A stretch of DNA of 64,000 nucleotides from Sporosarcina sp. PTS2304 (GTDB lineage Bacteria > Bacillota > Bacilli > Bacillales_A > Planococcaceae), in contig NZ_CP031230.1 of assembly GCF_003351785.1 (NCBI RefSeq), positions 1,955,001-2,019,000 on the forward strand, read 5' to 3'. The position numbers and the translations under genes are program-made. Position 1 is the stretch's first letter. Each line of letters begins with the position of its first letter. Shown piece after piece: positions 60,479-64,000 of this stretch. The notes under the pieces were generated by a model that was not told the origin of the DNA, did not search any database, and saw nothing but the letters and a program-made list of their open reading frames with translations.

Positions 60479-60886
60479 TTACTTCAATTTAAACGTAGCT
60501 GTACAATGCGCAACCATTTCATCTTTTTCATTAAATAACTTTGCTTCTACTAGCGCTGTACTACGGCTTCGATTAATAACGGATGCTCTTGAGTAGACAG
60601 CCTCTTCTTTAACGGGCTTTAAAAATTGTGTCGCCATTTGAATAGTCATTACGTCATCTGAACCAAGCGAGCGACAAAGCATACCCATCGTCGTATCTAA
60701 AACAGACATATATATACCGCCATGAATAGTACCACGTACATTATCATATTCTTTACGGTACGGAAGATATAATTCTACACTTCCTTCTTCCAACTTTTGT
60801 GTCTGTAAACCTGCAAATGTCCAAAACGGACTTGTTTCAAAATCTTGCCGCACATTTTCTAAGTATTGCACTTTTGTATCATTCAT
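60479..60886 (-). CDS. PaaI-type hotdog thioesterase
   Basis: A 135-residue hotdog-fold protein with GTIHGGIYMSVLDTTMGML (the HGG-X-D catalytic region) and VINRSRSTALVEAKLFNE. It probably hydrolyses an acyl- or aryl-CoA; substrate unknown. The start at 60886 follows GGAGGG. Confidence 0.87.
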   Translation of the reverse strand: MNDTKVQYLENVRQDFETSPFWTFAGLQTQKLEEGSVELYLPYRKEYDNVRGTIHGGIYMSVLDTTMGMLCRSLGSDDVMTIQMATQFLKPVKEEAVYSRASVINRSRSTALVEAKLFNEKDEMVAHCTATFKLK

Positions 60887-61013
60887 TACTTTCCCTCCAA
60901 GAAGTGTCATTCTTTACTTTATACAATATCCTACTCGTGCTCATAGGACAATTTTTTTCGCCCTATTCGTATACGTCATCGTCATATTTTTTATTATTTT
61001 TCAAGGAAAAAGG

Positions 61014-61042
61014 TTTGTTTTTTCACCTATTTCCTTTATAAT
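61014..61042 (+). promoter_or_regulatory. Probable promoter of the speD-speA-speE operon
   Basis: TATAAT (61037-61042) is a perfect -10. TTTGTT (61014-61019) gives a 17-base spacing but is a weak -35. A transcript would start near 61049 and include the leader ORF and hairpin below. Confidence 0.6.
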
Positions 61043-61085
61043 GAAGACAATTTCATAAGTTTTTTAATTTAGGAAGAGTAAGACT

Positions 61086-61121
61086 ATGAGTACCACGTCA
61101 ACCAAATCACCTGTTATGTAA
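61086..61121 (+). CDS. Putative leader peptide upstream of speD
   Basis: Eleven codons, MSTTSTKSPVM, ending in TAA. AGGAAGAG lies upstream (61071-61078). Four of eleven residues are Thr/Ser repeats and the end is Lys-Ser-Pro-Val-Met. It sits between the promoter and a terminator hairpin, as in attenuation systems. Translation is not proven; it is short enough to arise by chance. Confidence 0.4.
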   Translation: MSTTSTKSPVM

Positions 61122-61173
61122 TGGACTAGAGGGTTATCCTCTACACGTTTATATACAAGCAAACAGAGTAAAG

Positions 61174-61233
61174 GTCTCTCTCCAATCTGTCATGTTTGTG
61201 TATCTGCATGTCGATTGGGGAGAGACTTTTTTT
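61174..61233 (+). terminator. Leader terminator (attenuator candidate) before speD
   Basis: A 14-base stem GTCTCTCTCCAATC (61174-61187) / GATTGGGGAGAGAC (61213-61226) with a single G:U pair, then seven T. No gene on this strand lies upstream, so the hairpin is in the speD leader and should stop transcripts unless prevented. A small perfect hairpin TAGAGG / CCTCTA lies at 61127-61143. Confidence 0.8.
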
Positions 61234-61266
61234 CGATACCGTAGAAAATTTGAAAAGAAAGGACGG

Positions 61267-62091
61267 ATGTTTAGGTTGGACAATAAGCTGAAGCTCTACG
61301 GCTTTAACAACCTCACCAAAACTCTTAGCTTCAACATTTATGATGTGAGCTATGCGAAAAGTCGACGAGAGCAAAGTGAGTATATCGCCTATATTGATGA
61401 GCAATATAATTCAGAACGGCTAACAAAGATTTTATACGATGTTACCGAAATGATCGGAGCACACGTATTAAACGTTAGTAAGCAAGATTATGATCCACAA
61501 GGAGCAAGCGTCACGTTAATGATTTCAGAGGAAAAGTTCCCTGCTTCACAAATTGACCCTTCTTGTAATCAAGGAGCCATCCCGTTTATGCCAGATAAAG
61601 ATTCCGTTGTCAGCCATTTAGATAAGAGTCACGTAACGGTTCATACGTATCCTGAATACCATCCCGATAATTCAATCGCAACCTTTCGAGTAGATATCGA
61701 CGTCTCTACATGTGGCGAGATTTCTCCACTAAATGCTTTGGATTATTTAATCGGCAGCTTTGATTCAGATATTATTACTGCAGACTATCGAGTTCGTGGA
61801 TTTACTAGAGATGTAGATGGCAGAAAGTTATTCATGGATCATTCCATGACTTCTATTCAAGATTTCATCGATCAAAAAACATTAGAAAAATATGACGCGA
61901 TTGACGTCAATGTTTATCAAGCAAATATTTTTCATACGAAGATGCTGATCAAAGAAATCGACTTACAAGATTACCTATTTAACAAGGATGTTTCAGAACT
62001 ACCGCCGAAAGAAAGACTTCAAATCTCTCATAATTTACGGAAAGAGATGATTGAAATCTTCAGTGGTTCCAACGTCTATGAAAATGAGTGA
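61267..62091 (+). CDS. speD: S-adenosylmethionine decarboxylase proenzyme, E. coli-type
   Basis: A 274-residue proenzyme that cleaves itself at a Ser to form a pyruvoyl enzyme, supplying decarboxylated SAM. The site is LDKSHVTVHTYPE (Ser121 with this start). YDVSYAKS, RADIDVSTCG-like and YLIGSFDSDIITADYRVRGF match the class 1a (E. coli) form, not the short B. subtilis class 1b. ATG 61267 is the most likely start; a TTG at 61276 is an alternative. Confidence 0.9.
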   Translation: MFRLDNKLKLYGFNNLTKTLSFNIYDVSYAKSRREQSEYIAYIDEQYNSERLTKILYDVTEMIGAHVLNVSKQDYDPQGASVTLMISEEKFPASQIDPSCNQGAIPFMPDKDSVVSHLDKSHVTVHTYPEYHPDNSIATFRVDIDVSTCGEISPLNALDYLIGSFDSDIITADYRVRGFTRDVDGRKLFMDHSMTSIQDFIDQKTLEKYDAIDVNVYQANIFHTKMLIKEIDLQDYLFNKDVSELPPKERLQISHNLRKEMIEIFSGSNVYENE

Positions 62092-62101
62092 GGAGAAAAC
62101 T

Positions 62102-63559
62102 GTGACACTATCCCAACATCGTGTTCCTATTATGGAAGCATTGCAACAATACCAAAAAGCACGCGTCGTTCCGTTTGACGTACCAGGACATAAACATGGG
62201 AGAGGCAATAAAGAACTTGCGGATTTCCTCGGAGAAACGTGCCTGCATCATGATGTGAATTCGATGAAACCACTCGACAATTTATGTCATCCGGTTTCAG
62301 TCATTCGAGAAGCAGAAGAATTGGCTGCTGAAGCTTTCGGTGCAAAACATGCCTTTCTTTTAGTCAACGGCACAACTTCAGCAGTTCAAGCGATGGTCAT
62401 GACCGCTTGTAAAGCAGGAGAGAAAATTATTATGCCGCGCAATGTTCACCGCAGTGCGATTAATGCATTAATTTTAAGCGGCGCTGTGCCTGTCTATGTT
62501 AATCCGGGTGTTGAAAAAGAATTAGGTATTCCACTAGGCATGGCAGTGGATGAAGTAAAACGAGCGATCTTAGCGAATCCAGATGCAAAAGCCATACTTA
62601 TAAATAATCCAACTTACTATGGAATTTGTTCAAATTTGCAGGCAATTACTAATTTAGCCCATGCACATGACATGCTTGTATTAGTAGATGAGGCGCATGG
62701 TACGCACTTTTATTTCAATGATAAACTACCTGCTTCCGCCATGTCTGTAGGCGCAGACATGGCTTCCATTAGTATGCATAAATCAGGCGGTTCTCTGACG
62801 CAGAGTTCCTTCTTACTTATCAACAACGAAGTCAGTGAAGGCTACACGCGGCAAATTATTAATCTAACTCAAACGACAAGCGGCTCCTATCTATTAATGT
62901 CTTCACTTGATATTTCCCGTAAAAATCTTGCGCTTCACGGACAGGAGATTTTTGATAAAGTCATACGGATGGCACAATATACACGTGATGAAATTAATAA
63001 GATAGACGGCTATTATGCATATTCTAAAGAATTGATCAATGGGGATACTGTATTCGACTTTGATGAATCCAAACTGTCGATACATACGCGCCAAATGGGG
63101 CTTGCGGGTATTGAAGTGTATGATATTTTACGTGATGAGTATGATATCCAAATTGAATTTGGAGATGTAGCCAATATTCTAGCTTATATTTCTGTTGGCG
63201 ATCGAACGCTTGATTTGGAACGTTTAGTCGCAGCATTAGCGGAAATTAAACGAAGATATAAAAAAGATCCGAGTTCATTATTTGATCATGAGTATATTAA
63301 TCCGACCATCGAACAAACACCGCAACAAGCATTTTACGCGGAAAAAGAAGTGATGCATTTAACAAATTCAGCAGGACGAATCGCCAGTGAATTCGTTATG
63401 TGTTATCCGCCAGGCATCCCTATTGTGGCGCCAGGAGAGCTAATTACAAAAGAAATTATACAATACATTGACTACTGTAAAGAAAAAGGCTGCTTCTTAA
63501 CAGGCACCGAAGATTCAAATGTGGAATACATCAATGTTGTAAGGGAGGCTGACCGATGA
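62102..63559 (+). CDS. speA: PLP-dependent arginine (Orn/Lys/Arg-family) decarboxylase SpeA
   Basis: A 485-residue fold-type I decarboxylase. VPGHKHGRGN, AHGTHFYFN and the PLP lysine in SISMHKSGGSLTQSS place it in the SpeA/CAD-like family. It probably makes agmatine. GTG 62102 is preferred because GAGGAG lies six bases upstream; earlier in-frame ATGs (62051, 62084) overlap speD. Lysine decarboxylase is the alternative, less likely beside speD and speE. Confidence 0.9.
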   Translation: MTLSQHRVPIMEALQQYQKARVVPFDVPGHKHGRGNKELADFLGETCLHHDVNSMKPLDNLCHPVSVIREAEELAAEAFGAKHAFLLVNGTTSAVQAMVMTACKAGEKIIMPRNVHRSAINALILSGAVPVYVNPGVEKELGIPLGMAVDEVKRAILANPDAKAILINNPTYYGICSNLQAITNLAHAHDMLVLVDEAHGTHFYFNDKLPASAMSVGADMASISMHKSGGSLTQSSFLLINNEVSEGYTRQIINLTQTTSGSYLLMSSLDISRKNLALHGQEIFDKVIRMAQYTRDEINKIDGYYAYSKELINGDTVFDFDESKLSIHTRQMGLAGIEVYDILRDEYDIQIEFGDVANILAYISVGDRTLDLERLVAALAEIKRRYKKDPSSLFDHEYINPTIEQTPQQAFYAEKEVMHLTNSAGRIASEFVMCYPPGIPIVAPGELITKEIIQYIDYCKEKGCFLTGTEDSNVEYINVVREADR

Positions 63560-64000
63560 ACCTATGGTACACAGAAGATCATTCACCACATGTTCGTTTT
63601 TCTATTCGTGTAGAAGAACAGCTTTATACAGGGACAAGCGAATTTCAGAAGATTGATGTCTTTCAAACGACTGAGTTCGGTAAAATTCTCACACTTGACG
63701 GCTATGTAATGGTGACAGAAAAAGATGAGTTCATCTATCATGACATGATTGTACACGTACCAATGGCGACTAATCCCGCCATCGAAAAAGTGCTCGTCAT
63801 TGGCGCTGGTGATGGCGGTACGGTTCGCGAATTGACAAGATATCCATCGATTAAACAAATTGATATGGTAGAAATTGATCAACAAGTAGTAGAGGTTTGT
63901 CAGAAATACTTACAACAAACAGCCTGTCAATTGACTGATCCGCGTGTTAACTTATATTACGAAGACGGTTTAAAATTTGTCCGTCAACAAGAAAATGCCT
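63556..64000 (+). CDS. speE: Spermidine synthase SpeE, truncated by the window edge
   Basis: The first 148 residues of a polyamine aminopropyltransferase. WYTEDHSPHVRFSIRV, TTEFGKILTLDGYVMVTEKDEF, HVPMATNP and VLVIGAGDGGTVRELTRY are all normal. It overlaps speA as ATGA, with AAGGGAGG upstream, so the operon is tightly coupled. Confidence 0.95.
   Translation, partial: MNLWYTEDHSPHVRFSIRVEEQLYTGTSEFQKIDVFQTTEFGKILTLDGYVMVTEKDEFIYHDMIVHVPMATNPAIEKVLVIGAGDGGTVRELTRYPSIKQIDMVEIDQQVVEVCQKYLQQTACQLTDPRVNLYYEDGLKFVRQQENA

What the first reader, a model, noticed from the sequence alone, without database searches (positions are those of the whole stretch)
61043..61266. Candidate attenuator with an 11-codon upstream ORF in front of the polyamine operon speD-speA-speE
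The sequence shows a -10 (61037-61042), an 11-codon ORF with a ribosome-site-like AGGAAGAG (61086-61121, MSTTSTKSPVM), a small perfect hairpin (61127-61143) and a 14-base perfect intrinsic terminator with a T7 run (61174-61233), all before speD. The gene before it runs the other way, so the terminator has no upstream transcript of its own to end. Polyamine genes are known to use leader peptides that sense polyamines or precursors (speFL for ornithine in E. coli; the MAGDIS uORF of mammalian AdoMetDC). Here the ORF ends Pro-Val-Met-stop. A nascent-peptide or SAM/polyamine-responsive RNA could control readthrough. The ligand is inference.
Basis: partly seen in the sequence, partly recalled or inferred. 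Interest (0 to 1): 0.78.

Follow-up and report, generated by a model that had tools for sequence, protein, structure and literature searches.

The report
Conserved polyamine-operon attenuator RNA in Sporosarcina
In front of the spermidine-making genes of 14 related Sporosarcina genomes lies a strongly conserved leader sequence that ends in a predicted transcription terminator and is predicted to refold into a competing hairpin, so it likely switches these genes on and off; the short upstream reading frame that drew attention to it shows no sign of selection as a peptide.

Summary
A -10 box, an 11-codon ORF, a small hairpin and a strong terminator precede speD; the upstream gene is divergent. 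The same leader occurs in 14 of 68 genomes of the genus (14 of 261 in the family), once each, always before speD. Fourfold sites of speD are nearly saturated among these 14 (7/79 invariant), yet three leader blocks are almost frozen (28/32, 18/20, 41/45): selection acts on nucleotides. The 18-pair terminator stem is kept, with compensatory changes. The uORF reading is not supported: codons 2-7 evolve as non-coding (pN 0.27, pS 0.30), one genome lacks the start codon, another has an in-frame stop. A conserved alternative hairpin (61151-61203) uses the left half of the terminator loop and is predicted to form before the terminator completes: an antiterminator candidate. No Rfam family matches, SAM-I (parent of the published spermidine riboswitch) included. 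Best reading: an undescribed clade-specific transcription attenuator of a predicted six-gene spermidine operon, probably a feedback off-switch. The sensor (metabolite, protein or ribosome) is not shown. Against: full-length folding favours the terminator, the antiterminator lacks covariation, and the upstream competitor stem is predicted in only half of the leaders.

The parts
61037..61042 (+). -10 box TATAAT (TATACT in 2 of 14 genomes); no TTGAC-type -35 in the 14 leader-bearing genomes
61049..61080 (+). conserved block 1 (28 of 32 columns invariant), start of the predicted transcript; may form a weak 5' hairpin 61051-61075 that holds AGGAA
   Evidence: folded alone the hairpin is weak: -2.3 to -3.2 kcal/mol, z -1.0 to -1.8 in 13 of 14, and no hairpin in L011
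61086..61121 (+). candidate 11-codon uORF; no peptide-level selection seen
61106..61125 (+). conserved block 2, ATCACCTGTTATGTAATGGA (18 of 20 columns invariant); left strand of the predicted anti-antiterminator stem in the window
61111..61166 (+). predicted anti-antiterminator stem-loop: CUGUU 61111-61115 with AACAG 61162-61166, UGUA 61117-61120 with UACA 61154-61157, AUGGAC 61121-61126 with GUUUAU 61147-61152, small hairpin 61127-61143 at the tip
   Evidence: strong in the window's leader, weak or replaced by other pairings in many of the others
61127..61143 (+). small hairpin UAGAGG/CCUCUA; sequence variable, 95.7% of cells paired over 5 pairs in 14 genomes
61151..61203 (+). predicted antiterminator hairpin: outer stem 61155-61161/61193-61199 (11 pairs in the window, 61151-61161/61193-61203), inner stem 61163-61167/61186-61190
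61170..61233 (+). intrinsic terminator: 18-pair stem 61170-61187/61213-61230, upper CAUG/CAUG stem, T7 run 61227-61233
61258..61263 (+). AAAGGA, likely ribosome-binding site of speD
61267..62091 (+). speD, adenosylmethionine decarboxylase of the E. coli type (TIGR03331)
62102..63559 (+). Orn/Lys/Arg decarboxylase (PF01276), speA-like; start codon not settled
63556..64000 (+). speE, spermidine synthase; runs past the window end and is followed by speB, a carboxynorspermidine-synthase-like gene and nspC

Best explanation
This is a leader of about 190 nucleotides, conserved before speD in 14 related Sporosarcina genomes, that ends in a predicted intrinsic terminator, is predicted to fold instead into a competing antiterminator hairpin, and therefore likely works as a transcription attenuator of the spermidine operon. 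Shown by sequence comparison: the conservation, the kept terminator stem, the kept complementarity of the alternative hairpin, and the absence of peptide-level selection on the uORF. Predicted by folding: as the RNA emerges, an upstream stem (CUGUU/AACAG and neighbours in the window, other upstream partners in many relatives) can hold the left strand of the antiterminator; once the left half of the terminator loop (UCUGUCAUGUUUGU) is out, the antiterminator is favoured; when the terminator's right strand is out, the terminator wins. Inferred: a signal that stabilises the upstream fold or destabilises the antiterminator gives termination. The most likely signal is a polyamine-pathway product (spermidine first) bound directly by the leader, giving feedback repression of the predicted six-gene operon.
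For: Distribution: covariance model R1 hits 14 of 261 family genomes at E 4.9e-21 or better, one such hit per genome; the next best hit is E 0.03; all 14 lie upstream of speD. Constraint: invariant columns 28/32, 18/20 and 41/45 against 7/79 fourfold sites of speD and 7/34 in the spacer after the terminator (Fisher p below 1e-11 for each block against the fourfold sites; columns are not independent). Terminator: 99.2% of cells paired over 18 pairs, 2 pairs with changes on both sides, 5 varying on one side; hairpin -28 to -35 kcal/mol and a U run of 6-7 in 14 of 14. Antiterminator: 98.2% of cells paired over 12 pairs; z -2.1 to -3.1 in 12 of 14 when folded alone; favoured by 2.3-7.4 kcal/mol in 14 of 14 over folds that leave its right strand free, just before the terminator's right strand appears. 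UGUUUGU in the left half of the terminator loop is invariant at 6 of 7 columns (its first two bases also lie in the CAUG stem) and the facing GTATCTG at 0 of 7, which a plain terminator would not need. Architecture: divergent upstream gene. Of the 32 speD genomes of the genus without the leader, 30 have their listed -10 starting 32-109 bases before speD and 2 at 166, against 230-244 in the 14. Precedent for the sign: the published spermidine riboswitch is an off-switch with the same terminator/antiterminator logic (PMC10853860).
Against: No covariation supports the antiterminator: 10 of its 12 pairs never vary, one outer pair is lost in L013/L014 and another in L004; for the structure that holds it, covariation measures are reached by 32-60 of 500 shuffles, and sliding by -1 gives a higher covariation score (0.040 against 0.030). 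In full context the inner stem is in the minimum-energy fold of 12 of 14 leaders (not L002, L004) and both stems in that of 8. At full length the terminator has probability 1.00 in all five leaders tested, so the antiterminator would have to act kinetically. CUGUU/AACAG has probability 0.80-0.93 before the antiterminator forms in L001 but at most 0.36 in the four others tested; in 7 of 14 leaders block 2 is expected to hold at most 0.5 bases of the antiterminator's left strand, which pairs with other upstream bases instead; two genomes break one of its pairs. The antiterminator leaves most of the terminator's left arm in its own loop rather than pairing it. The leader before the terminator is not unusually stable. 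No ligand pocket can be pointed to. The element is confined to one clade, so divergence for a structure test is limited.
Confidence: 0.45

Rival explanations
1. Ribosome-mediated attenuation: a ribosome translating the short uORF pauses at its end (Pro-Val-Met-stop), covers the left strand of the upstream stem and so frees the antiterminator, in the manner of speFL in E. coli.
For: A start codon in 13 of 14, the same 36-base length from start to stop in all 14 aligned frames, invariant last codons apart from GTT/GCT, and an AGGAAGAG-like ribosome site. The stop codon 61119-61121 lies in the left strand of the upstream stem. In E. coli mdtU the C-terminal conservation likewise overlaps a region predicted to pair (PMC7815308, passages).
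Against: pN about equal to pS in codons 2-7, pS 0 with pN above 0 in codons 8-11, GCG instead of a start in L007, an in-frame TGA in L004. The predicted sign (stall gives readthrough) would be positive feedback for a product.
Confidence: 0.17
2. A protein binds the conserved leader RNA (or the region at the start site) and sets the terminator/antiterminator choice, as TRAP or PyrR do (recalled comparison).
For: Clade-restricted distribution and long invariant stretches fit a co-evolved protein site as well as an aptamer.
Against: No protein candidate was sought here; no repeated short binding motif is evident by eye.
Confidence: 0.2
3. The leader is a constitutive, partly leaky terminator that merely sets a fixed expression level; conservation reflects the terminator and promoter alone.
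For: Full-length folding gives the terminator with probability 1.00 in the five leaders tested; the upstream part is not unusually stable; no signal has been shown.
Against: Blocks 1 and 2 lie outside the terminator and are about as frozen as it is; the left half of the terminator loop is nearly invariant while the right half is free.
Confidence: 0.12
4. The leader is a diverged member of the SAM-I family, i.e. a known SAM or spermidine riboswitch.
For: The published spermidine riboswitches are SAM-I variants upstream of polyamine genes, one of them in Sporosarcina sp. D27 (PMC10853860).
Against: No RF00162 match in the window region at E up to 5 or in 8 of the 14 leader loci at E up to 1; the own genome has 8 SAM-I hits, none at the leader; no four-way junction in the predicted folds.
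Confidence: 0.02

Closest known systems
Spermidine riboswitch (SAM-I variant; Salvail, Balaji, Roth and Breaker 2023, PMC10853860; outline and abstract, sections 8 and 13, and passages seen)
   Same: Leader of polyamine biosynthetic genes in Gram-positive bacteria including Sporosarcina; intrinsic terminator against antiterminator; off-switch there, inferred off-switch here
   Different: No SAM-I aptamer and no Rfam match here; different sequence and predicted structure; ligand untested
speFL ornithine leader peptide of E. coli (through PMC7815308, passages seen)
   Same: Polyamine gene leader with a short ORF whose end overlaps a pairing region
   Different: Peptide not conserved here; intrinsic terminator instead of Rho; 11 codons
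mdtU uORF of E. coli mdtJI (PMC7815308, passages seen)
   Same: Short ORF in a spermidine-related 5' UTR with premature termination
   Different: Rho-dependent, serves an exporter induced by spermidine, 34 codons; translation was shown there and has no support here
trp and pyr type attenuators of Bacillus (recalled; of the TRAP paper PMC3913778 only the search listing with the start of its abstract was seen)
   Same: Competing RNA structures in a biosynthetic operon leader
   Different: No binding protein or motif identified here

Membership tests
Intrinsic-terminator transcription attenuator | Conserved terminator between promoter and first gene | tested here: met
   14 of 14 leaders, 18-pair stem with 99.2% of cells paired, U run of 6-7
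Intrinsic-terminator transcription attenuator | Mutually exclusive alternative hairpin | tested here: inconclusive
   Complementarity kept (98.2% of cells) and favoured before the terminator completes, but nearly invariant and without covariation beyond the controls
Intrinsic-terminator transcription attenuator | Regulated readthrough | not testable with these tools
   Needs RNA data
Spermidine riboswitch (SAM-I variant) | SAM-I four-stem aptamer with altered pocket | tested here: not met
   No RF00162 match in the window region or in 8 of 14 leader loci, none at the leader in the own genome
Spermidine riboswitch (SAM-I variant) | Upstream of polyamine biosynthesis genes | tested here: met
   speD and five further polyamine genes in the window's genome
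Spermidine riboswitch (SAM-I variant) | Selective spermidine binding | not testable with these tools
   Needs in-line probing
Polyamine-sensing leader peptide (speFL type) | uORF conserved as a peptide | tested here: not met
   pN 0.274, pS 0.304 in codons 2-7; pS 0 and pN 0.029 in codons 8-11; start lost in L007, in-frame stop in L004
Polyamine-sensing leader peptide (speFL type) | Ligand-dependent ribosome arrest | not testable with these tools
   Needs toeprinting or Ribo-seq
Any Rfam 15 family | Score above the family's gathering cut-off | tested here: not met
   Window 60500-61800 at E up to 5 and 8 of 14 leader loci at E up to 1: only sub-threshold eukaryotic or viral models

The most novel reading that the evidence does not exclude
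The leader is a second natural class of polyamine-sensing riboswitch, unrelated to SAM-I, that binds spermidine directly and terminates transcription of a whole spermidine operon carrying both the SpeD/SpeE route and the carboxynorspermidine-type route.
Probability: 0.25. Interest if true: 0.8.

Novelty: new variant of a known kind. Interest (0 to 1): 0.52.

Why it matters
The one convincing class of natural polyamine riboswitch known to me is the SAM-I variant of PMC10853860, whose authors expect further classes to be found. This leader gives a compact, testable candidate without a SAM-I core, before a complete set of spermidine genes. It also shows how comparing nucleotide and peptide constraint separates a constrained leader RNA from a leader peptide. 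If the signal is instead a ribosome or a protein, it would still be an attenuator of a universal pathway that I did not find described.

Tried and rejected
Leader peptide sensing polyamines: rejected as best explanation on substitution pattern, start loss and in-frame stop; kept as a rival.

SAM-I or another Rfam riboswitch: rejected. The genus-wide SAM-I search found SAM-I hits in 68 of 68 genomes, but its list was cut, so I did not check every hit against polyamine genes. Wider spread of the element: R1 gave nothing convincing in the other 247 family genomes (best E 0.03; 28 of 261 had some hit at E up to 1). The 'order' search covered 261 genomes again, with the 14 and the E 0.03 hit. A class sample of 398 genomes gave 4 hits at E up to 0.01, all from the clade. 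These large searches use stricter filters that lose weak matches. The alignments shown for the marginal hits L169-L171 look like chance.

Pairing of AGGAAGAG with the terminator's left arm: seen in one consensus prefix fold, broken by G to A in two genomes, not pursued. Own-genome pattern search: my pattern had the wrong spacing and could not match the window's own leader; 38+39 hits against 37+46 in the reversed control, so it says nothing. DNA operator at the start site: TGAA-N6-TTCA by eye in 13 of 14, not tested.

Rows and choices: speD matched 94 of 261 family genomes, 20 of these only partly; 46 of 68 in the genus. Of 28 full-length matches in other genera of the family I fetched 20 and read their upstream DNA by eye. 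Constraint and pair counts used the 14 only. Prefix probabilities were computed for 5 of 14 leaders. In one search the script picked a wrong -10 for L123; I left it in the counts.

Full report
What is there. The window shows, before speD (61267-62091), a -10 box at 61037-61042, an AGGAAGAG at 61071-61078, an 11-codon ORF at 61086-61121, a small hairpin at 61127-61143 and a terminator with seven T at 61227-61233. The gene upstream is on the other strand (60479-60910, a hotdog thioesterase), so this terminator has no other transcript to end. The whole leader is much more stable than shuffled sequence (z -4.07); without the terminator it is not (z -0.80).

Where it occurs. speD of this type is in 46 of 68 genomes of the genus and in 94 of 261 of the family at E up to 0.001, 20 of them only partial matches. 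A covariance model of the leader without its terminator (R1) finds it in 14 of 261 family genomes at E 4.9e-21 or better, one such hit each; the next best hit has E 0.03. In a sample of 398 genomes of the class, 4 have it at E up to 0.01, all of the same clade. The 14 have speD proteins 94-100% identical to the window's; the other members of the genus are at 83% or less. Of the 32 speD genomes of the genus without the leader, 28 show TTGAC before the listed -10; that -10 starts 32-109 bases before speD in 30 and 166 in 2. The 14 have their -10 at 230-244 and no TTGAC.

Selection acts on nucleotides. Among the 14, only 7 of 79 fourfold-degenerate sites of speD are invariant, and differences from the window at such sites are 52-63%. 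Yet 28 of 32 positions at the 5' end, 18 of 20 in ATCACCTGTTATGTAATGGA and 41 of 45 from ACAAGC into the terminator loop are invariant, against 4 of 25 in the first part of the uORF and 7 of 34 after the terminator. Fisher tests against the fourfold sites are (blocks p below 1e-11; uORF stretch p 0.45; spacer p 0.12); columns share ancestry, so the p-values overstate.

The uORF. Codons 2-7 have pN 0.274 and pS 0.304; codons 8-11 have no synonymous change but do have a non-synonymous one (Val to Ala in two genomes); speD, counted in the same way, has pN 0.021 and pS 0.623. pS in the uORF is thus lower than in speD, which points to some constraint that is not on the peptide. The start codon is GTG in 11, ATG in 1, TTG in 1 and GCG in 1; L004 has a TGA at codon 7, and named records L031 and L032 show the same letters. 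The conserved end SPVM-stop is explained by constraint on the nucleotides. Translation as such is not excluded: 13 of 14 keep a start codon, and no insertion or deletion falls between start and stop (a 2-base deletion in L009 touches the start itself).

The terminator and its competitor. The 18-pair stem has 99.2% of its cells paired, with two pairs changed on both sides and five on one side, and folds at -28 to -35 kcal/mol with a U run of 6-7 in 14 of 14. UGUUUGU in the left half of its loop is invariant at 6 of 7 columns although the right half varies freely. A scan for helices kept in at least 12 of 14 sequences listed eight; besides the terminator they include ACAAGCG/UGUUUGU and ACAGA/UCUGU, which stack into one hairpin, and CUGUU/AACAG. 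The hairpin (61151-61203 in the window) has 98.2% of its cells paired, but its structure shows no covariation beyond shuffled or slid controls. Folded alone it is more stable than shuffles at z -2.1 to -3.1 in 12 of 14, and not in L013 and L014. Just before the terminator's right strand appears it is favoured by 2.3-7.4 kcal/mol over folds that leave its right strand free, in 14 of 14; its inner stem is in the minimum-energy fold of 12 and both stems in that of 8. In the window it reaches probability 0.99-1.00 at 155-163 nt of transcript and gives way to the terminator from 171 nt. It therefore behaves like an antiterminator that must act in time, not at equilibrium.

What holds the antiterminator back. 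In the window an upstream stem (61111-61166) pairs with AACAG at probability 0.80-0.93 before the antiterminator can form; in L005, L010, L012 and L013 the same pair reaches at most 0.36. Over all 14 leaders, 5.0-8.3 of the 13-14 bases of the antiterminator's left strand are expected to be paired upstream before its right strand exists, but with block 2 in only 7 of 14 (3.3-7.3 bases; at most 0.5 in the other 7). The competition is therefore predicted, with changing partners, and this is the weakest part of the model.

Mechanism. The best-supported reading is a transcription attenuator. A signal that strengthens the upstream fold or prevents the antiterminator ends transcription; without it the polymerase may escape (inference). 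For a biosynthetic operon the sensible signal is the product, and the published spermidine riboswitch uses this logic (PMC10853860: abstract, sections 8 and 13 and passages seen). Here no SAM-I aptamer was found, so if the RNA itself binds spermidine it would be a separate class. A stalled ribosome at the uORF end would favour readthrough, the opposite sign. Direct sensing, protein binding and ribosome control are not separated by these data.

The operon. In the window's genome speE is followed by speB (TIGR01230), a carboxynorspermidine-synthase-like gene (NF043000, 428 bits, below that model's cut-off of 800) and nspC (TIGR01047), with overlaps or short gaps. So the leader likely governs six polyamine genes that contain two ways of adding an aminopropyl group (inference from gene order; the other 13 genomes were not checked for this).

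In print. Searches of the open library listed no paper whose title or abstract start describes this leader; the library lacks most subscription journals and bioRxiv, and supplementary files were not read.

Noticed in passing
L222:557-4621 (just past the window end): The gene row continues with speB, a carboxynorspermidine-synthase-like gene and nspC, so SpeD/SpeE and a carboxynorspermidine-type route lie in one gene cluster.
   Followed up: partly
L115, L117, L118, L119; also L051 and L054: Another Sporosarcina subgroup has a different long hairpin in its short speD leader (TTTCATAATT ... GGACCCTC ... GAGGGTCC ... AATTATGAAA), without a T run; its first predicted transcribed bases AATTTCATAA match those of the window.
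   Followed up: no
window 61005-61042: The 14 leader-bearing genomes have a near-consensus -10 but no TTGAC -35, with an A/T-rich stretch instead; 28 of the 32 other speD genomes of the genus show TTGAC. An activator may be involved.
   Followed up: no
window 61042-61055: A TGAA-N6-TTCA inverted repeat overlaps the predicted start site; by eye it is kept in 13 of 14 leaders and could be a DNA operator.
   Followed up: no
L036, L042, L043, L045-L047: speD relatives of 79-81% identity occur in Clostridia, closer than the 56-64% identical copies in other genera of the same family, which hints at horizontal transfer of speD.
   Followed up: no
L018 and L022, upstream of speD: Two genomes carry a G+C-rich insert of about 120 bases between the -10 and speD that by eye looks like a mobile repeat.
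   Followed up: no
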